A stretch of 49,306 nucleotides of DNA, taken from assembly GCA_001275005.1 (NCBI GenBank), contig JWZX01003347.1, positions 1 to 49,306 of the forward strand, written 5' to 3'. The stretch comes from Chrysochromulina tobinii (Eukaryota; Haptophyta; Prymnesiales; Chrysochromulinaceae). Under the pieces are notes generated by a model. That model was not told where the DNA came from and did no database searches. It saw only the letters and a list, made by a program, of their open reading frames with translations. A program made the position numbers and the translations under genes. Positions 3,095 through 41,388 of this stretch are shown here, piece by piece (within the stretch, counting starts at the first letter, position 1; every line of letters begins with the position of its first letter).

Positions 3095-6000
3095 ATGCAA
3101 CCTTTAAGCTCACCGCCGTGCGCGCAGTCGACTCGCCTGTCATCGTGCGGTATGTGCTCAGCGGGGCGGGCGCCGCCGGCCTGATTCCGCCGCCGTCGGC
3201 CAGCCTTATCATCCAGAGTTGCACCTGGGCAGTGACGATTACCGCGAGGTTGTCGAGCGAGCAACGGGAGCGCACGTGACAAGCAGGCTGCATCTCATCA
3301 CGGTCATCCACGGCGTCCCCGATGCAGAGCGATCCACGTGCTTTGCTGCCGCACGCCACATCGTGCGCGAGCTTCAGCCGCAGAGCACGGGGCTGATCGA
3401 GAGCGCGGAAGCCGTGCCGGCGCGTGTTTGTGCTCCGCTGGGCCCAGCGGAGCGGCTACTGACGAGACTGGATACTCTCAAGGCATCCCCCTCCCCCCCC
3501 GCCCCCCCCGCAAGGGTTGCACTTGGCAGCCAGGCGGCGGAGAAGGAGCGTGGTACTGAGGGGCTTCTCGGCGGTGTGATGGCCGCGCTCGACTTGGCGC
3601 TCAACAGGCTTGAGAAGGAGCGAGAGCAGCGGTTGCTGCGGGCAACGGCGCAAGCAGATCGGGATCTGTGGGCACTGCCACCGCCACCCTTCCGTGCGCG
3701 GGACGACGTCGTCGGCTGGTGCCGACGCGCGGTGGATGGCATCGTTCTGCACGCGGCGTCTCTGGGTGCGGCCGGTAAGCAGAGGCGGCAGCGATGGGTG
3801 GAGCAATCGGCCACGGCCCATGCGAAGCACTCGGATCGACAGCAGGATTCTCTCTTTATGATTCAAATCGTGCAGTACGGCCCAGCGCTCGCTCGAGCCC
3901 CGGATCCACTTGCTGGCAACGTGGGGTTCGCTCTACCAACCGACGTTCTCTCCGTCGCATCTCGACGAATCTCCGGATCTGGGCTCAAGCTCGCGGTGCG
4001 CTTGCTCATTGTGCAGCGACGATGCAGAGCCGGCGACGGCGCTGGCGGCCAAGGCGGCGCTGCAGACCATCGTGGCATGGGAGCCCACGCCGCTGTACGT
4101 CGCCCTGACTCGCAAAGCCCTTCCAGCGGCTGTGCGCCAGCTCAGCCAGGACGCTCAGCGCTGCTGCTTCGCGACGCCCCTCTCGTTGGCTTTACCGCCC
4201 ATCGCGCGTGTGCTGCATGCCGGGTTTGTCACGCAGATAGGCCAGCCGCCCGTCTGGTCGACGAGCCTACGGCTCATGCCCTCGGAGGGAGTCTGCTTGC
4301 TCTTCGAAGGGCCACCGCCCCACACATTTCTCCTCAACGGTTGTGAGGTGACCGCGCGCCTCCGCGGGCCTCTCCACCGAGCCGAAAGTGCTGAGGAGGC
4401 GTTATGTCGTCATGCCTTCCTCGATCCACCGCTGCTGGTCCAAATGCTCCGGCTAGTGCAGCGGCACGTGTGTGCGCTGCGTGTGGCAGCTGGAAGGCGC
4501 ACCGACGTCGTCGCAGCCGTCAAGTGGCTGAGGCAGCTCGTGATGGGACTGTCGGCGCCGCCCGTCAAGCTTGCCGGTCTTGACGCGCTGCACAAGCATG
4601 CGCTTGATGGCGCGTTGGCAGACCCTTCGCAACGCCACTCGATTCTGCGTGAGCGCCGACGGATGGCATCAGACCTGATGGTGGCGCTCAAGGAGGTGGA
4701 TGAGACGGCGCTGCTAGCAGCGGCGGCGGCGGGCTCCCAGGGCCTCACCGCCGCCTCTTTCCTTTCCAAGCCCTCGGAGCTCAAGTTTGGCGCTAAGGTG
4801 CTTCGTCGGGTGGCTCGCTCGGCTATGCCGGCGATCCGCGTCCCCTCGTTGCTTCGAGGGCTGCTGAGTGTCCAGAGTCGTCACGAGAGTCAGGATCGAG
4901 GAGGCGATGGCAAGGCGACGTGGACAGGTGATGAGGCGATGCCGCTCTCAAGCCACAAGGACCTTGCCGAGCGCGCGCTGTCCATGTGGGCCGAGCTTCT
5001 GGCGTTTGCAAACGCCGCCCTCCGCAGGGAGCGCACGGTGCCTCCGGGCGTCGGCGCCCTTCTCTACTCTTTTGGGATGGTGGGCATCCAGCTTCGCGTT
5101 GGCCGATCCGAAGCCGCCGCTATCAACCCCTGGGCCATTCGCATCGAATACCTCTCTCGCACTCCTTGCGACACAGTGACGGCTCTCTCTGCCCTCGACT
5201 GCGGCCACCAGCTCACGGATAGCACCGGTGAGCTCGCTCCAGATGTCTTGCCCCTCATCGACCCTGCCCTCGGCGGCAAAGCCTGCGAGGCGGTGGCCGG
5301 CTTCGTGAGATCGTCTCTCTATGCGACGCACCTCGCCCTTCTGTTCACCCGCTCACCCGCACTGCGCCTGCCGGCCCAGCGGGCGGCTCTGCTCGTCGTC
5401 TCGTTCGCCAAGGCGGCAGAGCAGCTGCTGCGCCGACGTGGGGGAGAGAGGGTCGCAGAGCCACGCGTCACGCGTCAGCCCTCCCGCTTTCAGCTGGATA
5501 CTAGCGTCGAGGACATGCGGCTCGCTCTCGCCATCTTGCACACCCTCGAGCTCACACAGGCGCACGCGACCGTTGTGCCCCAAGAGATGGCAAAGCAGCT
5601 CCTGGGACCGACTCCGGGAACATGTATGACCGAGGCGGGCGACGAGGGTCTCGACTCCCCCTGCCAGATCCTCGTCTTCCTCTGCCTCTCGCATGAGCTC
5701 TCCGCGCTCTTCGAGCCGACCGCAGAGGCGGCGGCTCAGCGCGCTCGGGTCGCTATGGCCCTTCTCGCCGAGGCTGTGTCGCGTTCGTGCCGCGTGCTGC
5801 TGCGCACGTCGCCGCCGCCGTGCGAGGAGCTCGAGGCTTGCTCGGGACAGAGCCCGATGATGCTCACCGCCCGCTCACTGGTGCGCAAGGCACTCGGCAT
5901 CAGCCCGGAGTCATGCCACGATGTGATGGCTGATGAGCTCGCCGAGCCGGCTGAGGTCAAGCATGCCGGCGAGTATGATGTTGACCTGGCGGTCCGCGCC

Positions 6001-7854: not shown

Positions 7855-10800
7855 CTAGACCTTGTATGGTTTAGTCATTGGCTTATTCGTTGGGGCTTGG
7901 ATCCTCGGTGGCATTGGGGGCTTGGCGGCTGGCACCTTGCCCTTGCGCCTCTTGATGAGCACATACAGAGCAGAGAGCACGAGGCAGCCTCCGAGGCCGA
8001 GACCGAGGCCGAGCCCGAGAGGAAGGGCGAGCGAATTGCTAGTGTTGGGAATGTTGTCGTTGGTCGTGAATGTTGGCGCTGAAGTGACGGTGATTCCGAG
8101 GAAGGAGCTGGCGGCCGAAGTCGAGCCAAGTGTGGTGGCGAGAGCGTTCGTGACGCCGGAGGCGGTGGAGCCGACGGGAACCGCTATGACAGCTGTGATG
8201 ATCACGGAGCCGGCAGCGACTTGGACAACGACGAAGGACGGGGGGACCTGATTGGGGGGCATGGGGGTGGTGAGGGAAGGGGGAGGAGAGATGTAGGGGT
8301 TAGAAGTGACGGGCAAGGGGTGACGAGGTAGGGGGGTGGGTAGGGAAGGAGAGGGTAGATGCGGCTCTCACCCCGGCCGCCAGCGCAAACTTGATTTGGA
8401 GATTCGTCATCCTCTGCTCATTGTAGTCAGACACGCTGCCGGCCGCCACAAGCGTCAGCGTGACCGTAGCGGCGCTCCTATTTGTGACTGTGGTGCTGCA
8501 GACCGCATCAGTGTTCCTATTGCATAGACTTGTGACGCCGGACTCCATGCACGTGCTGCATGCCGTGCACGGCGTCAGGCCGGTAGAGCTCCAGGTGGAC
8601 CCCGAGTCGCAGTTGGTGGCGTTGTTCACAATCGTAAACCCGAAGAGGCCCTGTGAAGAGAGGGAAGGCATGAAGAGGGGAGAGAGGGGAGGTGTGAAAG
8701 AGGGTAGGACATGTTCGACGCTTGGAGATATGGGGGGGGGGGCATGCAGGGGGCGTGCTTAGCAGATGCAGGGGGGGTGTAGTGCATGGGAGCTCACGAG
8801 GGAAGATACCGCCCTTGGAGATACATGGGAGATGCACATAGAGATACATGCATGCTGGGAGAAGAAAGGGGGAGAGTGCAGGGGAGCTCTCAAGCGCAGA
8901 CCGCCTTCTCACCTCCTTGAAAGATAGGGCCGACGCGGCGTTTCCTTGAGAGTCGACCCAAGTGCCCGATTCCCATCCCATCACGTACCTGCGGAGAGGG
9001 GCGGGGCGGGAGGTGTGAAGAGAGGTGTGCACCGCTGGTCGAGTGCGGAAGGCAGGGTAATGATGATAGGGAGAAGAGAAGTATGAAGGGCCTTGTGGAC
9101 GGCGCGCCGTTTGGATGGCGCGTGTGGACGGGCGCTATGAAGGGAGATGTGCAGAGAGGCTGCCGCTGCCATGGCGCGGGCGCTCAAGCGGAGACAAACG
9201 TGCGACGTGAAGAGAGGTGTGAAGAGAGGTGCAGAGAGAGCGGTGTGGAGAGGAGCGGAGAGAGGAGTGGAGAGAGGAGTGGAGAGAGGAGTGGAGGGAG
9301 GTGTGGGAGAGAGGCGGGGCGGGAGGCGGAACGGGAGGTGTTGAACAGAGGCGGTAAGATCCGTGTGAATAGAGGGCGGTGTGAAGACGTACGTGGCGGG
9401 TCCCGCGAGCGGAGGCAGTGTGAACACGACCGAATACTCGTTGGAGGGCGCCGGCGTCGCATTCAGCGCCGGGTAAGTCACAAAGCTGGCCGTGGGGGCG
9501 AACATGTTAGCCAGGCCCCTGGTGGCGTTGTTCAGGACGATGATCTTCATGTCTGCCTTCGGGGTGAGTCGGGAGCTCGATTTAAACGTCGCCGTCACGA
9601 CGACTGAATTGGCCGTCAGAGCGGGTGTGAGGCGAACAAGGGTCGGCCCTTCGGAGCAGCCTGTCGTGTAGCCGAGAGCCCTCGAAGGAGGCTGAGCACT
9701 AGTTGTCCTGGCCGCGAGCTTGCGCCGACGGCCGTTCACAGTTCGGAAGCTCGGGCTCGTCACACTTGCAGCATCGGGAGCGTCCGAATCCTCGAGCTTG
9801 CGGCGTCCAGCGGAGGGTGCGGAGGGAGGGTCAACATTGAACCTGGCTTGATTTCCTGCGCCATCGATGATGGCGCCATCATCGATCGCGATCGTGTAGA
9901 CGGTGTTCGGCTTCCATTTGCGGGGCTCCGAGTCCTCGTCGGTGGGATCTGAGAGGAGGCGGACCTCGACACGAGATTCGTCCTCGTACACGATGACCTG
10001 TTTCGGATCTGGCATCGCGAGATTGTGGAACCATCATGGGGTGGGGGGGAGGGTGGGTGAGAGGGTGTGTGCGGGATATTCTCCGAGGGAGGTGGGCGGG
10101 GAACGAGGGAGATGCAGGGTGGATGGCGCACCATTCATCGCGACGGTGAATGTGTCGACCGTAGTGCCGTTGTACTTGCCAGTAAATGAGATGTTCTTGC
10201 CTGGGACTGCTTCAATGTACTCCTGTGATAGATATGGGGGAGAAATGGGGGAGATTCTGTGTGAGATTGAGATCGCATGGGACCCGTCGAGATGCAGGCG
10301 AGGTGTGATGTGAGGGGGATTGCATGCCTCCTCGTTGAAGCAGAGGACGAGCGGCTGCGTCTCGTCCACGTCCGTGGCTCCCCATTTGGCGTCCGCCTCG
10401 GGGCACTCTTGCAGAGTCGGGGGAGTGGTGTCCGGAATCGTGTTGAAGTAGTAGTACTCAGATTCAGTGGTCATGGCGGTCTCGGCCATGTCGTAGATGG
10501 CGTCCGCGGGAATCTTGAGTCGGAATTGGCCACCCGCATAGAGCGGGCAGTTCTCGTTTGGCGAGATCAGGAGCTGCGCGCCGTCCACGTCGATATCGGG
10601 GTTTGTGATCTTCTCGCCATCCTCGTCAGTCGCGATGAGGGGGAGGGCGCAGTACGGTTCCGTATCTGAGTAGGATTCCCAGCACGATCCCCATCCCTCG
10701 TCGCAGAGCTCGTCAATGCTGATCACCTTGTCGGAGTCGTCTGGGATACGGATCGCGCGGGAAAAGGTCGCCTTGATCGTCGAAGCTGTCGTGAAGGCTG

Positions 10801-11200
10801 GGGCTGCGTGGTCGATGGACTTGTTCGCACTCTCGTACCCGGCACCCCATGTCTCGTCTGGCGTCACAGCGGGAGGCGTGAAGCCAGTCAAGGTGAGCGC
10901 ACCCGAGAAATCTTCCTGCAACGCTCGGCGACCTGAGACAGTGAAGGTCGACGAGAATCCCGCGACATTGTTGCCTAGGCCGTCGTGAAAGTAGCCGGCG
11001 GGCACCGTGACGGTGTATGTGCCGGCTGAGAAGGTTACGTTTGAGAAGGCAAAGTTGGCGGTGGAAGCGCCGTCCTCGAAGAGGTTTAGCGTGATGGTGG
11101 TGGTCGGGTTGCCGCCGGCTGGCGCGACGGTCGAAGGGGAGCTTGGTGGGAAGCTCGCTGGGCAGCTGCCAGCTGAGCAGGCCTTGACGGCGCGCGCCGC
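7855..11200 (-). other. Module 4: Ig-like/Cys-rich ectodomain, membrane span and tail
   Basis: The segment TPPTLQECPEADAKW...LVLCFNEE, followed after a GC-AG intron by EYIEAVPG, resembles SbsA-type Ig-like calcium or wall-binding repeats. A Cys-rich stretch (TACSTCMESG, CNRNTDAVC) looks like a TNFR/ephrin-receptor type knot. Two short modules of the type TVTLTLVAAGSV and VVVQVAAGSVIITA follow. The last exon encodes LGLGLGLGGCLVLSALYVLI, one membrane span, then a basic cytosolic tail. Confidence 0.65.
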
Positions 11201-14200
11201 GACCTGGGCAGGTACGAACGGGGGCGAGGGAGAAGTGAATGAGAGGTATGTGTGTGAGATGCGTGTGAGATGAGGGGAGGTGCGGGGAGATGCGCACCTG
11301 GCCAGTCTGGAAGGCGCCGTGGACAGTCCCTCTGAATAACGCCGACGTGTGCTCGCCTGCAAAGAAGAGTCTCCCTCCGACATTGCGACCAAAGGCGTCC
11401 GTGATGGTGTTCTTCGACGTACCTGCCATGATAGAAGACTCGGGGCAACTCAGGGGAAGGTCGGAGAACGGCACAGCCAACGGCAGCAGCGATGGGGGCG
11501 GCAGCGATGGGTTGGTCGACGCACCGACTGCGACATACGTGTACGCGCCCTTCGCAAGTGGATTGGCGCGCCAAGCCGAGCGAACGATCTGAGGCGCATC
11601 CGTCGGGACCGTGACAGAAGTCGGGAAGATCTTGACCAGATTCGCTCGGATCTGCGGGGGAGATGCCGGGGAGATGCGCGGGAGATCGTGAGCAGGTTCG
11701 TCCGGAACTACGCCCAGGCACTTGATGGGTAAGAGGTGTGCTGGAGAAGCGAGGGAGAACGCACCTGCGCCCAGACCTCGGCGTCGCTCATCCCTTCGGC
11801 CGTGTCGGCAGCCGCACCCAGTGCAAACGTCATGAGCACCGGCTTGGTCGACAGCTCATGCACGTTGAGGAAGTAGGTGAAGAGGCCGCGGTTGGTCCCC
11901 TGGGCAAGGCCATAATAGTGCGTGCCTGACGGCCACCAGTTGGTTGGAAACAAGAGTGCGATCTTGACGACGTTGCCGAAACCAAGCTGAGAGATGCCAT
12001 TTGCCGTAGCTGTCGGGAGTGCCGGGCTGAATGTGACTCTGGAGCTCGCGTCGGTGCTCTTGAGCACCCCGAGGGGGATCGTGATGATCACGTAATCAGC
12101 GTTGTACGTGCTGCTGTCCGCAGTCGTCAGCACAACTCCCGTGCTGTTGTACGTGACGGACGTGACGCGCTTGTTGTACGTGACCGAGATGGGCTGTCGG
12201 CTGGCGGACAGCACGGCGGTCACCTGCAGGGTGCTCGAGCCGTCATTTACCCGGACCGCGCCGCTCTGCAGCGCCTCGTACATCTGCTTGTACCCTTGTG
12301 CCCACACGAGCTCAGCGCCGTTAAATTTGGAATCATCATTGTAGTTCCAGGCTGACAGGTTAGTGACCGGCCCGGCGGTGTTGAACTCAGTGCTGACGGC
12401 GAGGTGGTACTGGAACAGCTCCGAATCTCGAGTCTGCCCCGAGTTCGAAAGGCCGGCGAGCGCCTGCCAAAGCGAAATGTCCGTCGTCGCCGAATTCTCC
12501 TGTGCTTGTGAGAGCAGGCTTTTGTACGGGTTGTACTGATCGTCGCTGGGTTCCGAGCAGGCCGAGTTCTGGTTTTCGGTGCAGAGGCGAAGTTCGGCCA
12601 AATTGTTTCTCGTCCGGACAAGTCCGGCACCTTCAGCCAGGCCCAGGGCCGTCGCGATCTTGGTGATCGGATGCGACTCATTGCTCCCGTGGATCCAGCT
12701 GGCGCCCATGTCCGTCGGCGCTCCCAGGGCGCCGGCGGTGTCCCAGGCCGTTCCCGCCTCGGCAGCATTCAGCGTCCATGTACGGCCACCAATGCGAGTC
12801 CCAGCTTCGAGCACCGTCAGCTCCAGGTGTCCTCCGTTTGCAGCAGTATCCCACGTGTCGATCAGAGTACGCGCCGCGGCGAGACCCGATGTGCCTGCAC
12901 CGACGACGACTACTTTGACAGTTGTGGCGACTGGCGTGGCAGACCGTGGCGACGGCGACGGCGACGGCGGTAGGGAGAGCGGCGGCAAGTGTGACGGCGA
13001 TGGTGCCTCACCTGAGCCCATGTCGCCGAGTGCGTCAGGTGGTGCCAGCGAGGGCGGGGACGACGAGGGCGACGGCGACGGCGGTTGGGAGAGCGGCGGC
13101 AAGTGTGACGGCGATGGTGCCTCACCTGAGCCCATGTCACCGAGTGCGTCAGGTGGTGCCAGCGAGGGCGGGGACGACGAGGGCGACGGCGACGGCGGTT
13201 GGGAGAGCGCCGGCGAAGGCGAAGCCAGCAGAGGCGATGGTGGGGAGGGCGTGCCCGTGTTGGTCGTGCTGGTATTGCGACTGCTCAGGCGGCTGGCGGT
13301 GCCGTGGTGGCCGTAGATGAGCAGGTTCCAGCTGCGGAGCAGCGAGTTGACGCTCGGACCGTTTGCGAGCCGCCGATCGCGGATCGCGAGCGTCCACGTG
13401 CCCACCGGGCTTTCGCCCCAGCTGCGCACGCTCGTCATCTTCCAATTGAAGCGTGGCAGGTAGAGCGAGGGCTGCCCGTTCGTGCCCGTCCAGTTCGCCG
13501 CAAGGCAGTCGTTATAGTCGCATTCGCAAGACTGAGGGTTGTCGCAAATGCCATCATTACTCGACGTGCACGTGTCGTCCTCGGCCGAGCAGCCCACGAC
13601 CGGCGGGTTGGACGTCTCGGGCCGCGGGCCGGGGGTCAGGACGGAGTGCGTGCCCGAGGGCGAGGTGAGCTCGAGCTGCAAGTCGCCGCGCGACGAGTGG
13701 TTGAGGTTGACGAAGATTTCGATCCACTCGATCGCCCACGCCTGGCTCTGTGCGCCGACCGTGACACTGGTCGACAGCGTCGAGCCATCGTGCGGGACGG
13801 TGAGCTGCTGCGACGAGTTCGCAATAATGCGCCGCTCAATCCCCCAGTTGGTCCACGAGAGCGCGGCGGCCACGGCCGCGCTGGCGTCGACCATGCCGAA
13901 GCCGTACTTGATGTTGTGGATGAAGCCGGCCGCGTTCGTGGTCCAGAGGGAGCTAGTGGGGTCGTTTCGGCTCGTCGTCGCCGCGAGGATCCCCGTGCAC
14001 GTCGCGCCAGCCGAGCAGCGGATTGGCTTGGAGCATGAGCGCGACCACGCCCGAGACGACGGGGCATGCATACGAAGTTCCCTGCCCCTGCTCGGCACAG
14101 CCGCCGCCTGTTGCCGCGACGTGCCAGCTGTTGCTGTGCTGAGTTGCGTCGCCGCCCGGCGCGGAGATGAAGAGCGACGAGCCCGTCACCGAGTAATACG

Positions 14201-17200
14201 AGTGCAAGCCGAGCTTGTCGGTGGCGCCGACGGTGATTGTGAAGCGCGAGTGCAAGTACTGCTCCATGTTGACGTCCTCACCTTGGGCGTTCTCGTTGCC
14301 TGACGACATGACGTACACGATGCCACGCCCGCTCCGCCCCTCGAGGACGCCACGCTGCAGGGTCCGTTTGGTCGCCCAGGGCAGGTGCGTGTACGCGCAT
14401 GTCATCCAGAGGTGCGTCCACGAGGCGCACTCGCCGTCCGCGTCATAGTTGGACACGTCCTGGCAGTAGGTCGAGATGACTGCTTCGCACGTGCTCAGCG
14501 GCGACGTCCAGCTGGCCCCAGGGCACTCGGAAGCGCTGCACGGGCTGGTGCCCGAGGCGGCCGTGGCCGCGAAGGGGCACCCCTGCAGCTGGCGCTGCCG
14601 GAGCTTGCGCCGCCCGGAGCTAGCGAGGGCTGTGCACGGGTCGATCCCCCACGAGTTGGATGAAATGTGGTTTCGGGCCATGTTGCCGATTAACATATTC
14701 GTGACGGTGTTGCCGTTCATTCCGCACTTGGACAGTGTCGCACCATACGCGACGCCGCGAGAGCACTGGTCGTTGCCGGCCGCGAGCGCGATCGCAGCCA
14801 CGGTAGTACCGTGGCTGCCGGTGGTGTGCGTCGGGCACGACCCCAACGCATCATACTTGCCCGAAAAATCCGGGTGCGTCTCATCGGGCCCATCGTCGAC
14901 AATGTTGATCGTCACGCCAGCACCAGTGTAGCCTGCTGCCCAGGCGGGCTGCAGGTTGATCAGAGTGTGCGCCCAGGCGTTTGTCTCGTAGTAAGGGTCG
15001 GTGACGTTCGACGCCACGCAGCCGCTGCTGTACGTCCAAACATCGTGCGGGCAGAGGACACGATCTCCAGGCAACATCGTGCTGGTCTCCATCGGACCAG
15101 TCGCACACAGCGCGCCCGCGGCGCACCACGCGTTGGCGGATTGGTCGGCCATGCAGCTGCTGCACGTGTAGAATCCGGATCTGAAGGTCAGCTGCCGTCT
15201 GTGAAGGTCGAAGAAGTTGGCGGCGGAAGCGCCGTCCTCGAAGAGTCTACGAGGATTCGACGTGATGTTGGTCGAGGTGCCGCTGGCTGCCGCGACGGTG
15301 GCGACTGGCGTGGCGGCAGTCCGCTGGAAGACAGGGGCCGAGAATCCGAACGAGATGGCAGAGATCGTCGCGGGCACGTTGGCGGTTGCAGCCGGCTGGG
15401 TTGTGGCGACGGTGGGCACGGGACGGGCCGCGGTGACGGTGAACTTACCGGACGGCGCCCAAAAGGCGCAGCCGGTGGTAGTCTGACCAGGGACCTTGGC
15501 CATGTCGGCGACGACACGAATCTGGGCCACGGTTGAGCCGACCAGACTCGTCGGGAGCACGACGTATGCCGAGCCTTCTCCCTTGTTGTTGAGCTTGACG
15601 AGGTGCTGGGATCGGACGAGGTCCGTCCAAGCGAGTCCTCCGTTGGTCGTCACTTCGAAGGTGAACTTGGCGCCCTTGACATCGTCCAGCCCGGGGCTCG
15701 CCGCCGGGTTTTTATAGCCATCGAGCTTAAAGGTGACGAGGGTGATCCCCGCGGGCACGGACGCGCCAGCGGCGGGCTGCTCGACGAGCATGGGCCCCAA
15801 GTCGACGACATTGACCTTGGTGATCGCGGCGTGCCAACTTCCATACGTGAGGTCTTGGCTGGCATTCGTGGGCTTTGCCGCCATGTAGTTGTCACGGACG
15901 GTCATGGCGAAGTGGATGTCTCGGGCCGTGAAGGGGAGCCTCTCCCCTGGCCAGAACGCCGACCCTCCGGGGACGACGATGGCCGCCGTCATGTTCGGGA
16001 AATTGCGCAGGAAGCCATGCGGCGAGGGGGAGACGGACCGAAAGAGGGGGCCCTTCCTGAAACCGATCGACATCGACTCTGCAAACTCCGCCGGGTCGAC
16101 TTGCTCCTAACTTGCTCCCAGGTGTAGGCGAGCACATCGGCCGCGTTCGGGTCGGTGCCCGAGCCTTGCAGGAAGAAGGGAGTGCTCTTAGGGATGGCAC
16201 ACGTCGCGGGCACGTTGGCGGTGGGCCGTTGGTTCGCGATCACGGTCCTGGTGCCGCACTGCTGCAGGTTCATGTCGTCGTTCAGTCGAACGTTGGCCTG
16301 GAAGTACTTCTCCTGGAACTCGTTCAAGTTGTAGACGTGGAAGTAGGGATCCGAGCGCATCTGAATGTTGTCGTCATCGCAGATCCCAGCATAGGTGACG
16401 AGCGTAGAGCCTGCGCCAATCTCCATCGCGGACGCGGCCATGAAATTGGAAGGCGAGCAGCTCGACCCTTTGCCGGACCATGTGTGAGACGTCCCGAACT
16501 GATGAGAGAACTCATGTGCGACGAAATCCACATCGTAACCATCGCCGACGGGGACTTTGCCGGCGGTGGCGCCGTTTGCCTTCGCGCTGAAGATTGGTTT
16601 CTCACCAGACCAGAACCCCGTCACCGGATCCTTGGTCCAGTGGGGAGACTGCCTGCATGGGTACATGCCGCCCATTCCTGGGAGATGCGTGGGAGATGCG
16701 TGGGAAGGTGTGGGAAGGTGCGGGGGCATGCGATGGGAGGCGCTCGAGGAGTTGGGGGGGAGATGGGGGTGAGATGTGGGGTAGGCCGCACCTGAGTCCA
16801 TGCCCACATGGAACATATGGCCGAGGTCGTAATCGGTCCGATTGACTCCCGTGGGGGTTGCGGTCTTCTTTGACTCAGGAGATGAGGGGTCGCCGATGAA
16901 CTCAATGAACCACTCGCCGTCGTTCATAAAGGCCTCGTTATTTCCGTTGGGCAGCCCGACTTGGTTGCTGGCTGACCATTTGGGGTAGTGAAGCAGCATA
17001 CCTTGCTTATCGATCATCACCATGTTGAGCCCCATCTCGCGACGCCAGATGCCGTTCGAGCGCGTGCAGGTGTTGACGATCGTTGCGAGCGCCGCCTCCT
17101 TGCACTTGGTCGCATCGCACGGATCAGTGTTGCCCTCGGTGTTCTCCTTGCACGGCGGGCAGCCACTATGGCCTGGCCAGCGGTACGGGATCGTGCACAT

Positions 17201-18250
17201 ACCGTTGTTACATACCTGAGGCAGGGTGGGAGTGTGAGGGTGGGGGCGAGCGTGAGGGCGAGCGTAAGGGCAAGGGGTGAGGATGAGTGAGGGTGGACCG
17301 AACGAAAGCGGCCGCGGCGGGTAGCGTCACGCCCCGGGGGAGGCGACCGGCGGTGCGCGCGCGCTGAGCAGCCGACGTGAGCGTCAAGGAGGGTGTTGAA
17401 TGTGAGGCTGAGATGGCAGCCAGACTGGAGCATGGCGCACCGAGGGGGTCACCATGCCGAAGACGTACTCAAAGCTGACCGCGACAGCCATCCGGAGCGT
17501 GCGAATGGTCTGATTCCCCTCAGGTGGGGGGTGTGTAACGGTCCAGATCGGATTGAAGGGCGCCGCCTGAAGCCGCCGCCCGTCGTGAACATCTCCCTCC
17601 GTTGTGAACGTCTCTGCGAGCCGGCGCCCATCGTGCACGTCTTCAGAGATCTTGGTGAACGTGCGCACCCCCGGCTCGCCCCGCTTGTTGGAGCTGTGGT
17701 AGACGGTGTACAAGTCCGTACGGCTGTGGGTGTGAGGGTCGATGTGGCACCGCCCCAGGTTCGGCTCGCCCTCGGCGCCCCCAATCCAAATTTGGCCGCG
17801 CACGCCTTGGATGGAGACGGTCAGGTCAGCGGTGTGGGCCGACCGATCGGCAGGAGGGGAGACCTCGACTCCGTGATAGGAGCGGATCCTGGGGAACTCG
17901 GCCTCGAGGCCGGCCGGCATGACGGGCGACTTGGTGAGTTTGAACGTGGCGGCACCACCGCCCAGGCAAAGAGGAAGGGAGATCTCCGAGCCCTCGACGA
18001 TCCCGAGCGCCGCTCCATCAAACACGAAGTTCTCATTGTCCTCGAGGTGCCGCCGCTTCAGCTCGGGGTGACTCAGGTGGAGCGAAACGAGCCGCACCGT
18101 GTCCGAGGGTGCCCGACGAACATACGCGTCGCCCACCTCGTTGCTCAAGTGACGCCCATGGAGCGGCGCATCGGTCACATCGGTCCAGTGGATACTCGGC
18201 CGAAGCTCTGGCAGTGCAAACGCCGCTGCGACGAGAAGAGCGAAGATCAT
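7855..18250 (-). CDS. Giant secreted metalloprotease-kexin-amine oxidase membrane protein (10 exons, ~2,935 aa once two indels are allowed for)
   Basis: Exons in coding order: 18250-17453, 17215-16792, 16677-11765, 11651-11298, 11203-10328, 10222-10132, 10008-9393, 8988-8913, 8650-8372, 8247-7855. Every join has GT-AG (one GC-AG, at 10327) and matching phase. The protein starts with a hydrophobic signal peptide (MIFALLVAAAFA). M12B metallopeptidase, S8 protease with P domain, Pro-rich linker, FAD amine oxidase, Ig-like and Cys-rich modules follow. A glycine/leucine membrane span and a basic tail (IKRRKGK) end it, so it is predicted type I with all enzymes outside the cytosol. Two indels inside exon 3 (11 nt near 16100-16120, 1 nt at 13991-13994) shift the frame. 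Together they add 12 nt, so the flanking parts share one frame. It could be split into separate genes, but no start, stop or promoter gap is seen between modules. Confidence 0.72.
8989..9392 (-). repeat. 404-nt intron made of pyrimidine-rich short repeats
   Basis: The intron joins GCCAC|GTACGT to GCAG|GTACGTG in phase 2, giving AT|YVMGWESG. Its interior consists of degenerate CACCTCTCTT and CTCCACTCCT repeats on the coding strand. No protein signal was seen. The downstream exon (8988-8913) is only 76 nt. Confidence 0.7.
11205..12930 (-). other. Module 3: FAD-dependent amine oxidase
   Basis: The module opens with the FAD-binding VVVVGAGTSGLAAARTL, then LEAGTRIGGRTW and MGASWIHGSN. It closes with SAWRANPLAKGAYTYV and LFFAGEHTSALFRGTVHGA, the C-terminal flavin-contact region of polyamine/monoamine oxidases. 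The domain spans exons 3-5 and looks full length (~550 residues). By family it oxidises an amine and releases aldehyde, ammonia or amine, and hydrogen peroxide. The substrate cannot be told from sequence. Confidence 0.87.
12973..13208 (-). repeat. 38-residue Pro/Ser-rich tandem repeat (114 bp period)
   Basis: Two nearly identical 114-bp units and a partial third encode LSQPPSPSPSSSPPSLAPPD followed by ALGDMGSGEAPSPSHLPP. They form the hinge between the P domain and the amine oxidase. The high identity implies a recent duplication and a flexible, probably O-glycosylated spacer. Confidence 0.9.
13310..15000 (-). other. Module 2: kexin/furin-like S8 serine protease with P domain
   Basis: All catalytic blocks are present: Asp in INIVDDGPDETHPD, His in GSHGTTVAAIALA, Asn in MSSGNEN, Ser in GTSYACPVVSGVVALM. 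The DDG form and the following NPLLGWRDV and YGFGMVDA segments are typical of the S8B (kexin/furin) group. A P (Homo B) domain follows, with WIEIFVNLNHSSRGDLQLEL and GTWTLAIRD. It has a small Cys-rich insert (CDNPQSCECDYNDC). By family, the enzyme would cleave after paired basic residues. Confidence 0.88.
13991..13994 (-). other. One-base frameshift in a G4 run within the S8 protease
   Basis: The coding strand reads GACGTGCACGGGGATCCTCG. The upstream frame gives NPLLGWRDVHG and then leaves the family pattern. Dropping one G continues as ILAATTSRNDP and KYGFGMVDA, as in kexins. No intron fits because conservation is continuous across the site. The cause is either a homopolymer error or a true disabling indel. 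Confidence 0.8.
16100..16120 (-). other. 11-nt tandem duplication that shifts the frame
   Basis: The coding strand has GGAGCAAGTTA directly followed by GGAGCAAGTCG. With one copy only, the reading is TWEQVDPAEFAESMSIG, leading into KGPLFRSV, the expected family order. With both copies the frame is lost. A 35-nt intron starting GTTAGG is formally possible but would use a poor GAG acceptor. Confidence 0.75.
16110..18250 (-). other. Module 1: propeptide and M12B/reprolysin-like zinc metallopeptidase
   Basis: After the signal peptide come ~230 residues of prodomain-like sequence with two VHDGRRL repeats. The catalytic part has the metzincin zinc site HEFSHQFGTSH (about residues 460-470, near 16490-16520), fitting HExxHxxGxxH. 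It is followed by a GSTLVTYAGICDD segment that resembles the region after the zinc site in reprolysin-like peptidases of bacteria and protists. The module ends in a family-typical LAYTWEQ, exactly where the 11-nt duplication falls. Confidence 0.8.
16678..16791 (-). repeat. 114-nt intron with GCATCTCCCA repeats
   Basis: Donor GACTCAG|GTGCGG and acceptor CTCCCAG|GAATGG join as GMDSG|MGGMY. The length is a multiple of three, so the ORF reads through. The 3' half is two GCATCTCCCAC and two CACCTTCCCA units that supply the polypyrimidine tract. The same CATCTCCC words recur in other introns of this gene (11652-11763, 11204-11296, 10223-10327). Confidence 0.75.
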
Positions 18251-35887: not shown

Positions 35888-36945
35888 ATTCACGGTCGGA
35901 TCATGGCGGGCTGGAAGAAAGAGCTGAGCGCCGGCCGGCCGGGCCGCCAAGACTGTTCTGACTACTTGATGACCCGAACTTAATCCCCAGGATGCGACAC
36001 GAAGGGCATGCGGTTAACATGCGGTATGGAGCTGAGCTGCAGAGTGCAGTTGCTGCATGCTGGACCTGGAGTGAGAACGAGTCTACAGACTTAATCCAAT
36101 CGCAATCCCTCGTGCCGCCCCTCCACTTCCTGGTACTGCTTGTTTTCCCCTTACCGGCACTTGGTGCCCGGATCTTGGATTTAAGTTTCAATTTCGAATC
36201 AGAACCCCATCTTACAATTTTTGATTGGTAAAGATAGTGATTTGTATTGGTGGTTTCAGCGTGCGGAGCGCTGCTACGGGCGCACTCGGCACACGGCAGG
36301 GAGCCGCCCCCCCCAATACATGTAAGGTTAATTAGGGCTCAGCGCCCAATGTCAGCGCCGGGGAACTAGCGCACCAACTGGCTGTTATCGGCTGTGAACG
36401 AAAGGCGGCGCATCTGAGGAATCTTATATGAGAGCGCGCCCTCGTTCACGCGAGAATCATGGAAGCCGACGAGGACGACGGCATCCCGCGATCCCGCACG
36501 AGGCCACCCCGCTCGCACGTACGCTCAAGAACGCTCACTCAAAAAAAAGCACACTTAAAGTACACACCAACCACCCCAGCAGCCACCAGCAAACATCCAA
36601 GTATTACTGTACGGAACCGGAAGTAGTCTTAGCACAGGACAGTAGCCAGAACGACAGAGATGATCTCCGAAATTAACGATCTCGGATAATATCTCGGCGA
36701 GTTCAGGTGAAGCGCCGCGGATGCGCGAGACGCATCCTAGGATCGGTTGGGCCCAATGCCGTGTATGTCCCTATAGCATAGAAGATGCTAACCGTGTACC
36801 TATGCACAGGACACAGTTCACAGAGCTTGAGCGCTCCAAACGAACAAACCATATGCCCGGCGCCACGCGTCCGTTTCACTTGTGCGAGTGACCTTTTTGA
36901 GGACTCACAAAAGGCCCAACCGACGCGTACACAGCGAGGTTGCCA
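35888..36945. other. Intergenic region, ~1.06 kb, no gene seen
   Basis: This is less GC-rich than the genes and full of stops in all frames. A run of C (36307-36316) and an A8 run (36541-36548) occur. The short open frames (such as 36428-36676) show no recognisable protein. It presumably contains the terminator of the upstream gene and the promoter of the next. Confidence 0.55.
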
Positions 36946-39900
36946 ATGGCAGCACCCGCGCCGGCGGAGGAGGCCCTACGAGCCGACGAGGTGGATGAGG
37001 TGGCGCCGGGCGCTGCCGCCGGAGAGCCTGAGCCAGAGCTACCGGAGCTGCGTTCGGTGGGCCCCGTGGATTCCTCTTCGGAATCTGATCAAGTGGACTG
37101 TACAAATGACGAGCCAGCGATAGCAGCAGCACCAGCGGAGCTCACGGCAGCCACTTCCACGGCCGATGCTGCTCAAATAGAAATGCCCAAAACGCCTGCC
37201 GGGGCCGTGATGGAGGAGGTGATCGCTGCGAGTGTCCTGGCCGTTACCGGTGAGGCGGAGGAGGAGGCAAGCAAGGCCGCCGAGACCAAGGAGAATGCGC
37301 CGCGGCAGGCCGGCGCCGGCGTGCTGGTCGCCTTCGAGCCTCCGCGGTCGCAGCTGCCGCCGCCGGACCAAACTTCAAGCGTGGCCGGCATCATCGGGCA
37401 GCTCAAGATGGCGCTCGCTATGAATTTGCCTCGGATCATCGACACGTTCCGCGAGATTGACGAGGACCAGTCGGGCAAGATCAACAAGCGCGGGTTCCGG
37501 CTCGCGCTGCAGAAGCTTGGCATTGTCGCCCACAAGTCTACGTGCGACCTCACGTTCGACTCGCTCGACAACGATCGCTCCGGCGCGATCGAATACGAAG
37601 AGCTCAAAACTCACCTGCGGCTGTTGCCGGACTTGACCGATGAGCCAGCGATAGCAGCAGCACCAGCAGAGCTCACGGCAGCCACTTCCACGGCCGATGC
37701 TGTTGAAAGTGAAAGGCCCAAAACGCCTGCCGAGGCCGTGGTGGAGGGGGTGATCGCTGCGAGTGTCATGGCCGTTACCGCTGAAAGGCCCAAAACGCCT
37801 GCGGAGGTTGTGATGGAGGGGGTGATCACTGCGAGTGTCCTGGCCGTTACCGGTGAGGCGCTGCCGGACTCTGCCGATGAGCCAGCGATAGCAGCATCAG
37901 CAGCAGAGTTCACGGCGGTCACCTCTATGAATGACGAGCAAGCGGTAGTAGCAGCAGGGGCAACAGAAAACGTGGTGCTCCTCAAAGCTGTTCTGCAGGA
38001 GGACGAAGACGGCAAGGAGAAGCTCGGTCAACGGATCCACCGCGAGGTCGCCTTTGTCCAAGATTGGAATGAGAATCAACTTGCAGAGGCAGGCTTCACC
38101 CCAGAGGAGCAGCTTCATATCGACAACATAGAGCCACCTAACCCTACGCGTCGACAACTCTTTGGATTCAACTCGCAGGCCTTGACGACGCCTCAACGAA
38201 AGTACCTCGCTTCGTCGAGCACCGAAGATGATGCGGAATACATGAGAGGAGAAGTCAAGAGTGCGGCCGATATGAACAAGGCCGTTACACCACCGCGCCG
38301 GAGAAGCTGGCTACGCTGGCTTTGGCCGGGGCGTTCGAAAGCGGGCAGAGTCGGCGACGCTGGATCACAGGTTGATGCACAGGCCGGAACTCAGGAAGTC
38401 GAGAATGAGCCGGAAGAGGAGCTGGCCGATGGGTGGCAGGCGGAGATGCTCGACGACGGGCGGATCTTTTATTGGAACGCCAAGACTGAGGAGACTTCAT
38501 GGGTGCGCCCTTCCAAGCCCAAGCAACCCGAGCCGCCCGAGCCGCCCAAGCTCGTCGGCAGAATCGGTAGGAAACTTGCACTGCTGCATAGGCTCAAGAA
38601 TAACGCCAACGCTGGCGCCTCCCGAATCAAGGCGAAGCTCGAACGTGACTGGTATAAGCTCAGGAGCATCACGCTACTGGACGTTGGACGTTGGGCAAGC
38701 TACCTGTTCACGACCTTAAGCCATCCCTTCCGTTCGATGTTCTTGGCGTGTTCGGTCGGCTTAATGGGCTTTTTGTGTGTGCCTGTACTGCTGCTGCTGC
38801 TGCCCATTCGACGCTTTCGTCCCACGTGGTGGTACTCTATTACCAATCCACTCTTTGCTCAGCTGTGGGCGACCTTCATCGTCGCATTCGAAGTCTTTGG
38901 TGGACTCCGCATCTCCTTCTTTGGGGAAGAGCCCATGCCTGGCGAGAAGCTCGTCATCTTTGCAAATCACCACTCCTCTTGTGATTGGCTGGTACTCCTT
39001 GGTCTCGCAGCCCGGTTTCGCGCGTTGGAAGGCACGCGATTTGTTGCTGAGACACCGACATCCAACATCCCCTTTTTCAAAACCATGCTGTGGCTGCAGC
39101 AGACCGGGACGTCGTCGGACTTCATTGCGACGTCGCGCGACCTCGGGGAGCACTCTCGTTCGCTGTGGCTGTGCCTCTTCCCGGAGAACAACAAGGTGTT
39201 GCCCGATGCAAGTCCAAGCACAGCTCGCACATGGACGTGGCGCCGTCGCGGCTCATCACAGCGGGTGCAGCCACAAGACGAGAGTCCCAAGCTGCCTGGG
39301 TCGTCCGAATCGGTGCCTCCGCCGACATTGTCGGTAAAGTGCCCACCAGGCTTTGGGGCGGGACACACCGTGACGGTGGAGGATCCGAGCACCGGGAAGG
39401 AGTGGCAGGTGACGATGCCAGAGGGGATCGCGCCCGGCCAGACCTCTGAGTGGATAATACCCCAAGCACCCAAACCGCCCCCCAAGAAAAGATTTTGGGA
39501 CTCGTGGACGAACGAAGACGCTGCAGCAGCTGCCGACAGACTCTTTAAAGAGCTCGACGCCGACGGGAGTGGCAAAATCTCTCGCTCAGAGCTTGAGTTG
39601 TGTATGCGGGAGATCTATGGCAAGCCTCTGGAGGCTGAGGTTCTCGACAAAATGATTGCGGATTTTGACGTGGATGGCGATGGTGAGATTGACCTCATGG
39701 AGTTCCGGATAATGATGCGTGCCTGCGAGAAAGAAGCAGAGGCTGCCAAAGAGGCTATGACGAAGCTCAAAGAGCGCGCGCATGCGGCCGACCTGGTGGC
39801 AAAGCTGCGGCGCGTCTTACTGAAAAAGGGGTTGTTTCGCGTGTTCGAGACCTTTCGCAAGATTGATGTGGACGGTTCCGGCGAAATCGAAGTCGATGAA

Positions 39901-41388
39901 TTCAGTGATGCGATGCGCTTGTTGGGGCTACGTTTGTCCGACGAGGACGTCGACCTGCTCTTTCGCCAAATCGACGCCGACGGGAGTGGCACAATCGAGT
40001 ACAGAGAGCTGAATAAGCTCTTGCGGCATGGCGAGGACGCACCGAAGGGTGAGATTTCGGTTGCCTCGCCCTCGCCCAAGCGCATAGAGACCTCGCCCAA
40101 GCGCACCAGTACCTTGACGTACCAGCATCTATCGCAGCCTCGTGCCAAGATTCTCCAAGACGTGCTGCAGGGAGCAAGGCCGCCATTGTTGCACGCTTTC
40201 GACATGACGCTTGCATACTATGACAGTGACACCGGAAAGCCAGCCTCTCTCTGGGATGGCCTCTTTGGTACCGTTTCCGTCGATGTGCTCATGCGGCGCA
40301 TCCGGCTGCCAAAGGGCCCCGTGGTGCCAAATAGCGTGGGCACGCTCAAGGTGACGATCTTGCATGCGACCAACCTGCTGTCGGCCGACTCGAACGGCAA
40401 GTCGGACCCGTACGTTGTCGTGAAAGCGGGCGGGATGGCCCAGAGGACGAAGCACGTCCTCGAGACGCTCGACCCAGTGTGGAATAAGACCATCGAGTTC
40501 CAGGGCAAGTTGGAGACGTTCCTCGCGCGGCCGCTGCATCTCAAGCTCTTCGACATGGACGTCTTTTCAGCCGACGACCCGCTCGGTGAGGTCAAGGTGT
40601 CGCTCGACTACCTGATTCTGGGTGGCCAGCAGGACTTTGTCGAGCGCGTCCAACCTGTCAACGGGACCTTGGATCCGAGCCAGGGCACGCTCAAGGTGAC
40701 GATTAAGCATGCGAACGGGCTGATGGCGGCCGACTCGAACGGTTTATCAGATCCGTACGTGGCAGTTCACGCAGGCGGGATCGCCAAGAAGTCGAAGGTC
40801 ATTCCTAAGACGCTCGACCCGGTGTGGAATGTGACCTGGGAGCTGCAGGGTAAGCTGGAGGTGTTCCTCGCGGAGCCGATGCACATCGAAATCTTCGACA
40901 AGGACCCCTTCATCTCAGACAAATCACTCAAGCTCTACGACGACCCGCTCGGCGATGTCAGGATCCCGCTCGACGATATCATCGCGCGGGGCGGCAAACG
41001 GGAGATGACCGAACCGCTGGGGGTTCCAGAAGGGGCACCAGAAGAGATGAAAGAAGGACAGGGCACGGTCAGCTTCGAGGTCGAGTGGATCTCGGGCCAG
41101 GGCACTGTTTACTTTTCGGCCGAATGGCTCCCTTCCGAGGGCCTTTCCCACAGCTCCAAGCAAAATGACATAGCCGTCTGGCTCGAGGATATCTGGGCCG
41201 AGAAGGATAAGGCCCTACACGCGTGGAAACGTGACCCTGCGTGCTGGTTTGAACGAGCCGGCTTTCAGCACGCTTGGCTGCGCCTATGCCCGATGCTTGT
41301 TGGCATCATCTGCTATTTGACACCATACCTTGTGCTGGCCGCTGCGATTGTGACCGGAATCATGATTGGGACCGGGGTAGGGACGTGA
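36946..41388 (+). CDS. WW/EF-hand/LPLAT acyltransferase/double-C2 membrane protein (1,480 aa)
   Basis: A single exon starts at CCAATGG. In order: Ala/Thr/Glu-rich repeats (EPAIAAAPAELTAATSTADA, three copies) flank an EF-hand pair (DEDQSGKINKRG, DNDRSGAIEYEE; ~170-222). A WW domain (GWQAEMLDDGRIFYWNAKTE; ~494-522) is followed by a hydrophobic span (~597-620). An acyltransferase core follows, with NHHSSCDW (HX4D, ~675) and LFPEN (~745). Four canonical EF-hands come next (~870-1025). PLLHAFDMTLAYYDSDTG (~1080) resembles the later part of AGPAT enzymes. Two C2 domains (~1132-1345) carry DSNGKSDPYV and DSNGLSDPYV Ca2+ loops, and a C-terminal membrane hairpin ends the protein. By family it would acylate lysophosphatidic acid at a membrane. 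Ca2+ control is inferred. Motif III is FPEN rather than FPEG, so activity is uncertain. Confidence 0.75.
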   Translation: MAAPAPAEEALRADEVDEVAPGAAAGEPEPELPELRSVGPVDSSSESDQVDCTNDEPAIAAAPAELTAATSTADAAQIEMPKTPAGAVMEEVIAASVLAVTGEAEEEASKAAETKENAPRQAGAGVLVAFEPPRSQLPPPDQTSSVAGIIGQLKMALAMNLPRIIDTFREIDEDQSGKINKRGFRLALQKLGIVAHKSTCDLTFDSLDNDRSGAIEYEELKTHLRLLPDLTDEPAIAAAPAELTAATSTADAVESERPKTPAEAVVEGVIAASVMAVTAERPKTPAEVVMEGVITASVLAVTGEALPDSADEPAIAASAAEFTAVTSMNDEQAVVAAGATENVVLLKAVLQEDEDGKEKLGQRIHREVAFVQDWNENQLAEAGFTPEEQLHIDNIEPPNPTRRQLFGFNSQALTTPQRKYLASSSTEDDAEYMRGEVKSAADMNKAVTPPRRRSWLRWLWPGRSKAGRVGDAGSQVDAQAGTQEVENEPEEELADGWQAEMLDDGRIFYWNAKTEETSWVRPSKPKQPEPPEPPKLVGRIGRKLALLHRLKNNANAGASRIKAKLERDWYKLRSITLLDVGRWASYLFTTLSHPFRSMFLACSVGLMGFLCVPVLLLLLPIRRFRPTWWYSITNPLFAQLWATFIVAFEVFGGLRISFFGEEPMPGEKLVIFANHHSSCDWLVLLGLAARFRALEGTRFVAETPTSNIPFFKTMLWLQQTGTSSDFIATSRDLGEHSRSLWLCLFPENNKVLPDASPSTARTWTWRRRGSSQRVQPQDESPKLPGSSESVPPPTLSVKCPPGFGAGHTVTVEDPSTGKEWQVTMPEGIAPGQTSEWIIPQAPKPPPKKRFWDSWTNEDAAAAADRLFKELDADGSGKISRSELELCMREIYGKPLEAEVLDKMIADFDVDGDGEIDLMEFRIMMRACEKEAEAAKEAMTKLKERAHAADLVAKLRRVLLKKGLFRVFETFRKIDVDGSGEIEVDEFSDAMRLLGLRLSDEDVDLLFRQIDADGSGTIEYRELNKLLRHGEDAPKGEISVASPSPKRIETSPKRTSTLTYQHLSQPRAKILQDVLQGARPPLLHAFDMTLAYYDSDTGKPASLWDGLFGTVSVDVLMRRIRLPKGPVVPNSVGTLKVTILHATNLLSADSNGKSDPYVVVKAGGMAQRTKHVLETLDPVWNKTIEFQGKLETFLARPLHLKLFDMDVFSADDPLGEVKVSLDYLILGGQQDFVERVQPVNGTLDPSQGTLKVTIKHANGLMAADSNGLSDPYVAVHAGGIAKKSKVIPKTLDPVWNVTWELQGKLEVFLAEPMHIEIFDKDPFISDKSLKLYDDPLGDVRIPLDDIIARGGKREMTEPLGVPEGAPEEMKEGQGTVSFEVEWISGQGTVYFSAEWLPSEGLSHSSKQNDIAVWLEDIWAEKDKALHAWKRDPACWFERAGFQHAWLRLCPMLVGIICYLTPYLVLAAAIVTGIMIGTGVGT

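What the first reader, a model, noticed from the sequence alone, without database searches (positions are those of the whole stretch)
7855..18250. One polypeptide combining an M12B metalloprotease, a kexin-like protease with P domain, and an FAD amine oxidase
Seen: HEFSHQFGTSH, the full S8 Asp/His/Asn/Ser set with a P domain, and both ends of a flavin amine oxidase lie in consecutive exons whose splice phases agree from signal peptide to membrane span. Known: each family is normally a separate protein. I know of no described protein with this order. Inference: a surface-anchored enzyme that could cleave proteins or peptides and then oxidise released amines, giving ammonium and hydrogen peroxide. 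In an alga this could serve nitrogen scavenging, defence or wall/scale processing.
Basis: partly seen in the sequence, partly recalled or inferred. Interest (0 to 1): 0.92.

Follow-up and report, generated by a model that had tools for sequence, protein, structure and literature searches.

The report
Algal protease–amine-oxidase chimera gene
A freshwater alga carries a surface-protein gene in which a furin-like protease and an amine-oxidising enzyme have been pasted, fused together, into a metalloprotease gene; the protease–oxidase fusion is well supported, but whether all three enzymes are made as one chain is still open.

Summary
The window is from the haptophyte Chrysochromulina tobinii. 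Minus strand 18250-7855 holds an 11-exon gene model from a hydrophobic N-terminus to a C-terminal membrane span. It encodes an M12B metalloprotease with PKD/Ig-like domains, a kexin/furin-type S8 protease with P domain, a Pro-rich linker, a polyamine-oxidase/LSD1-type flavin amine oxidase and Big_5/Ig domains. Splice phases agree, but the frame does not: exon 3 breaks twice (near 16109 and 13998), and as assembled translation stops after 636 residues. The S8-P-oxidase fusion is real: one 825-aa frame here, plus a near-identical metagenome protein (P0001) with Ig-S8-P-oxidase in one unbroken 1427-aa frame. Related M12B-Ig-Big_5 proteins (P0084-P0087) lack the cassette. It sits inside their Big_5 domain, flanked by a roughly 85-bp direct repeat, and is tiled by DNA 88-90% identical to separate protease and oxidase genes of the same genome, introns included. 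Other relatives carry the oxidase alone near this place. So this is a recent nested domain insertion in a gene family that exchanges enzyme modules. The M12B-S8 link as one chain is plausible but not shown: the first frame break lies where identity to P0084 drops. No transcript was available.

The parts
17453..18250 (-). exon 1: hydrophobic N-terminus (signal-peptide-like), prodomain, first strand of the M12B domain
   Evidence: open frame and splice model; relatives of the N+M12B+Ig unit; no signal-peptide program was run
16792..17215 (-). exon 2: M12B metalloprotease, N half
   Evidence: splice model; alignment A2
11765..16677 (-). exon 3 (4913 nt): M12B C half, PKD/Ig, start of Big_5, S8, P domain, linker, oxidase N part; broken in frame twice
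16484..16516 (-). zinc-binding motif HEFSHQFGTSH
   Evidence: three His and Glu invariant in 16 of 16 rows
16095..16117 (-). first frame break: short tandem duplication with in-frame TAG 16109-16107, at the point where identity to P0084 drops
15214..15299 (-). left copy of the direct repeat (start of Big_5) flanking the cassette
   Evidence: 77.5% identical to 11131-11052
13253..15171 (-). S8-P cassette: kexin/furin-like protease with P domain
   Evidence: 87.8% DNA identity to C1468; Pfam; furin 3.8e-42 and kexin 1.1e-35 via P0001; Foldseek top hits Kex2/furin from a low-confidence model
13987..14003 (-). second frame break (one-base shift) just after the catalytic Ser region of S8; absent in P0001
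12925..13252 (-). Pro/Ser-rich linker with a 114-bp-period tandem repeat, in frame with both neighbours
   Evidence: ORF 14185-11708; repeat 13214-13064 / 13100-12950, 97%
11136..12924 (-). flavin amine oxidase cassette with introns 3-5
   Evidence: 90.2% DNA identity to C919 including introns; Pfam; PDB
11525..11651 (-). exon 4 (oxidase)
11298..11422 (-). exon 5 (oxidase C-terminal FAD motif GGRLFFAGEHTS)
11052..11131 (-). right copy of the flanking direct repeat (Big_5 resumes)
10328..11203 (-). exon 6: oxidase end, Big_5/Ig-like domain
10132..10222 (-). exon 7 (Ig-like)
9393..10008 (-). exon 8 (Ig-like)
   Evidence: Big_5 only at 0.012, below cut-off
8913..8988 (-). exon 9
8372..8650 (-). 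exon 10: Cys-rich stretch, start of a SEA-like region (by eye)
   Evidence: no Pfam family above cut-off
7855..8247 (-). exon 11: SEA-like region (by eye), membrane span (about 8034-7951), short basic tail, stop

Best explanation
A cell-surface, multi-enzyme chimera of Chrysochromulina tobinii made by recent DNA-level domain insertion. The host gene is a bacterial-type M12B (reprolysin) metalloprotease with PKD/Ig and Big_5 domains. Into its first Big_5 domain a cassette was inserted: a kexin/furin-type S8 protease with P domain, joined by a Pro-rich linker to a polyamine-oxidase/LSD1-type flavin amine oxidase. Shown: the S8-P-oxidase fusion in one frame, relatives without the cassette, the flanking repeat, and separate protease and oxidase genes in the same genome. 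Inferred: the intact allele is secreted and membrane-anchored; the proteases trim or degrade extracellular proteins or activate the chimera itself at dibasic sites; the oxidase turns amines into an aldehyde, ammonium or a smaller amine, and H2O2 at the cell surface, serving nitrogen scavenging, oxidative defence or scale/matrix cross-linking. Whether M12B is in the same chain as S8-oxidase in this strain is unresolved (I put it near 0.5).
For: S8 C-part, P domain, linker and oxidase N-part lie in one 825-aa frame. P0001: 99.6% identical over 1412 residues, unbroken Ig-S8-P-oxidase, 18 member sequences on 3 contigs. Cassette-free relatives: P0084 residues 1-608 match model 331-905 and residues 571-839 match model 2149-2417; P0085-P0087 align likewise. 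Flanking direct repeat. Tiling by C1468 (87.8%) and C919 (90.2%, introns included). Separate S8-P genes (C1468, C1453) and oxidase genes (C2142, C919; C1768 by similarity) in the same genome. Oxidase alone after the M12B-type Ig region in P0008, P0005 and P0003. Catalytic motifs present in the window model. P0001 and the S8 model resemble furin/kexin; the oxidase resembles LSD1/PAO. dN/dS 0.31-0.69 between window modules and paralogues. N-terminal hydrophobic stretch and C-terminal membrane span.
Against: Two frame breaks as assembled; translation stops after residue 636. The first break coincides with a fall in identity to P0084 from 250 of 250 residues to 46/50 and 43/50, which could mean an assembly chimera or a recombinant. 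P0001 and P0005 are called from Met residues just past that point. No full-length relative among 24 hits. No transcript or protein evidence. In the oxidase exon, changes private to the window are 11 nonsynonymous and 7 synonymous, so relaxed constraint is possible. C468 is a decayed relic of the same gene. Fused oxidases fall in two clades, one holding a signal-peptide-type oxidase, and metagenome contigs may be chimeric. The M12B Met-turn is changed.
Confidence: 0.72

Rival explanations
1. Two genes or products: a secreted M12B metalloprotease that ends soon after 16109, and a separate S8-P-oxidase product downstream, with its own start outside the model.
For: In-frame TAG at 16109-16107 in the downstream frame. 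P0005 and P0001 start at the first and second Met after it. M12B relatives without S8 or oxidase exist (P0084-P0087).
Against: The called start of P0001 has no hydrophobic leader (by eye), although the downstream frame codes for extracellular domain types and ends in a membrane span. P0008 and P0084-P0087 read through this place in frame. The Ig region after the break is joined to M12B in those five relatives and in the bacterial reprolysins of alignment A2.
Confidence: 0.25
2. Assembly chimera: the contig joins an M12B-Ig-Big_5 locus to a different S8-P-oxidase locus at the duplicated bases near 16109 (454/Illumina hybrid assembly re-joined with Phrap).
For: Identity to P0084 is 250 of 250 before the point and lower after it. 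The assembly method used shredded consensus fragments (PMC4580454 passages). About 6 Mb of the published 59 Mb is not in the copy held here.
Against: No second M12B locus and no second Big_5 region of this kind was found in the 53.15 Mb held. M12B-Ig continuity is natural in five relatives. P0001 independently joins Ig to S8-P-oxidase.
Confidence: 0.2
3. Pseudogene: a recently decayed chimera with no product.
For: Two frame breaks; relic copy C468; dN/dS up to 0.69 and 11:7 private nonsynonymous to synonymous changes.
Against: The near-identical P0001 lacks the S8 break; outside the two breaks the spliced model has no stop; active-site motifs kept; S8c-P dN/dS against C1468 is 0.31.
Confidence: 0.15
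4. Chance or domain mis-assignment: unrelated neighbouring genes read as one.
For: Compact genome (abstract of PMC4580454); long frames are also open on the other strand at high GC.
Against: Single 825-aa frame with two curated families above cut-off, and P0001.
Confidence: 0.03

Closest known systems
Bacterial reprolysin-like M12B metallopeptidases (Pfam Reprolysin_3/4/5)
   Same: prodomain, HExxHxxxxxH zinc motif, PKD/Ig-like C-terminal part; 24-39% identity over 27-100% of the N-terminal 837 residues for the 90 hits outside the algal-type group
   Different: bacterial ones often end in a T9SS sorting domain or P domain (Pfam column); the algal one has introns, Big_5 and a membrane span, and Val in place of the Met of the 'IM' turn
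Kexin/furin proprotein convertases (S8 with P domain)
   Same: Asp/His/Asn/Ser motifs, P domain, closest solved structures furin and Kex2
   Different: Cys-rich insert of about 80 residues (by eye) with a polybasic stretch between the Asn and Ser motifs; embedded between other enzymes
Polyamine oxidase / LSD1-type flavin amine oxidases
   Same: FAD motifs and the Lys motif; best matches LSD1 1e-38 and maize PAO 6e-29 for the paralogue P0007
   Different: extracellular layout, fused to a protease here; other algal copies carry a C-terminal Hint domain (PF01079) or an internal ShKT-like insert (by eye)
Haptophyte cell-surface amine oxidase activity (Prymnesium parvum)
   Same: extracellular oxidation of primary amines to ammonium by a membrane-bound enzyme, as cited in PMC4478897 (passages)
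   Different: that paper links the activity to a copper amine oxidase; the enzyme here is flavin-type

Membership tests
M12B reprolysin | Zn motif HExxHxxxxxH | tested here: met
   H, E, H, H columns invariant in 16 of 16 rows; Reprolysin_4 4e-11, above cut-off
M12B reprolysin | Met-turn methionine | tested here: not met
   13 of 13 other rows read IM; the 3 algal rows read LV. So it is filed as 'works like, M12B-related', not as a strict member
M12B reprolysin | M12B fold | tested here: inconclusive
   Structure prediction failed, pLDDT 34; profile A2 matches ADAM8 at E 0.0033; single ORF found no relevant PDB chain
Kexin/furin (S8B) | S8 catalytic motifs plus P domain | tested here: met
   frame broken between the motif part and the C end in the window, intact in P0001
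Kexin/furin (S8B) | Cleavage after paired basic residues | not tested
   acidic subsite residues were not mapped; needs an assay
Flavin amine oxidase, PAO/LSD1 type | GxGxxG FAD motif, Lys near N5, C-terminal FAD motif | tested here: met
   all three in the spliced window model; in relatives P0001-P0018 the first two in 18 of 18, the third in 5 of 18 (many of the others are gene calls that end before it or run out of frame there); catalytic role of the Lys is recalled
Flavin amine oxidase, PAO/LSD1 type | Oxidation of a named amine | not testable with these tools
   needs expressed protein
Single three-enzyme polypeptide | One open frame from M12B to oxidase | tested here: not met
   stop after residue 636; 0 of 177 listed proteins hold both the algal-type M12B motif and the oxidase FAD motif
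S8-P-oxidase fusion | One open frame in an independent assembly | tested here: met
   P0001

The most novel reading that the evidence does not exclude
A combinatorial ectoenzyme locus: in freshwater Chrysochromulina one surface metalloprotease gene receives and exchanges enzyme cassettes at its Big_5 domain (empty, oxidase, or protease-oxidase). In the three-enzyme form the embedded kexin-like protease matures its own polyprotein at the over-represented paired-Arg sites between modules, giving a surface proteolysis-plus-amine-oxidation machine.
Probability: 0.2. Interest if true: 0.85.

Novelty: new variant of a known kind. Interest (0 to 1): 0.58.

Why it matters
It is a traceable case of nested domain insertion, with separate donor-type genes, a flanking repeat and cassette-free relatives, that yields an enzyme combination I saw in no other protein of the searches except P0001 (S8-oxidase). 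If expressed, it links extracellular protein cleavage to amine oxidation on one algal surface protein, and the flavin oxidase family offers testable genes for haptophyte cell-surface amine oxidation and H2O2 release. It also suggests how an alga can rebuild a bacterial-type metalloprotease gene by module exchange.

Tried and rejected
Viral contigs: no match to P0001. Full-length relatives: none among 24 hits. Structure of the M12B part: failed, pLDDT 34; the Ig-S8 model has mean pLDDT 49 and is usable only in the S8 core. PDB search with the single M12B ORF: nothing relevant. Literature: six searches of the held open-access library, listings only, showed nothing on the fusion or on reprolysins in haptophytes (12 of 27 papers listed; 43: 8 of 8; 53: 3 of 3; 57: 10 of 190; 61: 2 of 2; 76: 0). 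Palenik & Morel 1991 is not held; I know it only through passages of PMC4478897. Considered and rejected: chance juxtaposition (P0001), retro-copying of the oxidase (its introns came along). Considered and left open: the first frame break as the scar or remnant of an introner-like element (9-bp direct repeat; introners occur in Chrysochromulina sp., PMC9860276 passages; introns of this gene resemble each other). All 10 acceptors in the model are CAG and this place would need another, so I rate it low. The RR enrichment (15 against 4.7 expected, 0 of 2000 shuffles) has a weak control: of 9 other long window ORFs, one was reached by only 2 of 500 shuffles and three more by 18 to 35 of 500. In the oxidase tree the signal-peptide group came out empty, so no label test ran; I read the tree by eye.
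Full report
What it is and where. The window is contig C2188 of a 53.15-Mb draft genome. Its genome paper (PMC4580454; I saw the abstract, the outline and the passages of one term search) reports a freshwater isolate, 454 plus Illumina sequencing, a 59-Mb assembly in 3,472 contigs and RNA-seq at seven time points. The terms 'amine oxidase' and 'protease' do not occur in its main text.

The gene model. On the minus strand, 11 exons run from the ATG at 18250 to the stop at 7855. Nine introns are GT-AG and one is GC-AG; all ten acceptors are CAG; phases agree. Pfam: Reprolysin_4 4e-11, S8 3.9e-30, P domain 7.5e-15, amine oxidase 1.2e-40 and 1.4e-9, Big_5 8.3e-9. The first residues are hydrophobic and a membrane span lies near the C-terminus; no signal-peptide program was run.

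The frame breaks. The first break is a short tandem duplication (a 9-bp direct repeat) within 16117-16095, with a TAG at 16109-16107 that is in frame with the downstream part; the second is a one-base shift near 13998, just after the S8 serine region. As assembled, the product ends after 636 residues with only the metalloprotease. Unbroken forms exist elsewhere: P0001 reads through the second place, and P0008 and P0084-P0087 read through the first.

The S8-P-oxidase fusion is real. ORF 14185-11708 (825 aa) holds the S8 C-part, P domain, linker and oxidase N-part without a stop. A search with it gave 59 proteins among 7982 scored candidates, a capped set limited by length. One of 59 has S8, P and oxidase together by the Pfam column: P0001 (JGI, 1427 aa, 18 member sequences, 3 contigs), 99.6% identical over 1412 residues of the model. 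The other 58 have either S8-P or an oxidase. Two further capped searches, with the read-through model (24 hits) and with the N+M12B+Ig part (98 hits), showed no other protein with S8 and oxidase.

How it arose. P0084-P0087 are M12B-Ig-Big_5 proteins without S8 or oxidase. P0084 residues 1-608 align to model 331-905 and residues 571-839 to model 2149-2417; P0085-P0087 align likewise: versions without the cassette. In the window the Big_5 start occurs on both sides of the cassette as a direct repeat, 15299-15214 and 11131-11052, 77.5% identical. The cassette is tiled by DNA of other genes of the same genome: 15171-13253 is 87.8% identical to the S8-P gene on C1468, and 12924-11136 is 90.2% identical to the oxidase gene on C919, introns included. 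The 328 bp between them are a Pro-rich linker with a tandem repeat. The separate genes whose starts I saw look secreted: C1468 and C1453 (S8-P, membrane span by eye), C2142 and C919 (oxidase directly after a hydrophobic start; C919 with a Hint-type end). A more distant oxidase gene, C1474, has no hydrophobic start. P0003, P0005 and P0008 have the oxidase joined directly to the M12B-type Ig region; P0002 has it after a stretch 94% identical to the window's exon-11 SEA-like region. In an oxidase tree of 20 rows, read by eye, the fused copies fall in two supported clades (99/96 and 100/99), one containing a signal-peptide-type copy, so joining or exchange happened more than once, unless metagenome contigs are chimeric. 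C468 is a decayed copy with large internal losses. The M12B gene is single-copy in the assembly held. Of the 98 hits, 8 are algal-type and 90 are others at 24-39% identity; of the 12 of these whose name states an organism, 8 are Bacteroidota, 3 Gammaproteobacteria-type and 1 Phycisphaerae. This suggests a bacterial origin; no tree was made for it.

Does it work? Zn-motif residues are invariant in 16 of 16 rows, but the Met-turn 'IM' of the 13 other rows is 'LV' in the 3 algal rows. S8 motifs are present in the window model; with strict patterns all four are found in 7 of 14 S8-bearing relatives, P0001 among them; several of the rest are partial proteins. The nearest solved structures are furin (3.8e-42) and kexin (1.1e-35) by sequence for P0001, and Kex2 and furin by fold (TM 0.31/0.45, from a model with mean pLDDT 49). 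The oxidase, judged by the C. parva homologue P0007, is nearest to LSD1 (1e-38) and maize polyamine oxidase (6e-29), then spermine oxidase (1e-22), MAO-A (1e-14) and L-amino-acid oxidase (3e-13). dN/dS between window modules and paralogues is 0.31, 0.46 and 0.55 for S8-P pieces and 0.59-0.69 for the oxidase exon; changes private to the window oxidase are 11 nonsynonymous and 7 synonymous, to C919 11 and 4, to C2142 5 and 12. This speaks for weak to moderate constraint, not for none.

The open link. Between the M12B part and the rest, identity to P0084 is 250 of 250 residues up to residue 580 and then 46/50, 43/50, 50/50, 47/50, 48/50, 23/27; the change falls in the block that holds the first frame break. 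Either the contig joins two loci, or a real recombination or insertion scar lies there. P0005 and P0001 are called from the first and second Met after that place, which may mean a stop there too or only a gene-caller's choice. I could not fetch their contigs. Against two separate products: the called start of P0001 has no hydrophobic leader, although the gene ends in a membrane span.

Mechanism, marked by step. Shown: architecture, fusion of S8-P and oxidase, the traces of insertion. Follows from family knowledge: an M12B-type zinc protease, a subtilase of proprotein-convertase type, and a flavin oxidase making H2O2. Inferred: surface display; self-processing at dibasic sites (RR occurs 15 times against 4.7 expected, 0 of 2000 shuffles; the control is weak, see Tried and rejected); role in using amines, in defence or in matrix cross-linking. 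Haptophytes are reported to oxidise amines outside the cell (Prymnesium parvum; PMC4478897, passages), but that report points to a copper enzyme.

Novelty. Each part is a known family; the combination is not among the hits except for P0001 and the partial fusions named above, and the literature listings showed no mention (open-access papers only). I file it as a new variant of a known kind (multidomain surface enzyme made by domain insertion).

Noticed in passing
16791-16678, 11764-11652, 11297-11204: Introns 2, 3 and 5 resemble each other beyond shuffles (scores 48, 37, 33 against maxima 29, 29, 26 of 100; best of 45 pairs, pairs 8-9 and 2-8 exceed theirs only barely), as introner-derived introns would (introners reported in Chrysochromulina sp., PMC9860276 passages).
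   Followed up: partly
L052 (C468) 4059-5000: A decayed copy of this gene: pieces of exon 1, exon 8 and the C-terminus brought together with large losses and a 26-bp inverted bit.
   Followed up: yes
L020 (C919); P0004, P0007, P0012: Secreted-type amine oxidases with a C-terminal Hint domain (PF01079), an odd fusion in its own right.
   Followed up: no
P0003, P0008, P0013: A ShKT-like Cys-rich segment (by eye) is inserted inside the oxidase domain.
   Followed up: no
L028 (C1468) 6536-1797, strand -: S8-P protease in one 1579-aa frame with ShKT-like N-terminus, membrane span and a long Ala/Glu-rich tail that by eye looks armadillo- and PDZ-like.
   Followed up: no
36904-41385 (+): ORF with EF-hands, C2, WW and a weak acyltransferase match.
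   Followed up: no
41994-43640 (+): Ankyrin-repeat ORF with a weak SAM match.
   Followed up: no
7783-7647: Direct repeat of about 56 bp just downstream of the gene, 94.6% identical, also found downstream of the C468 copy.
   Followed up: no
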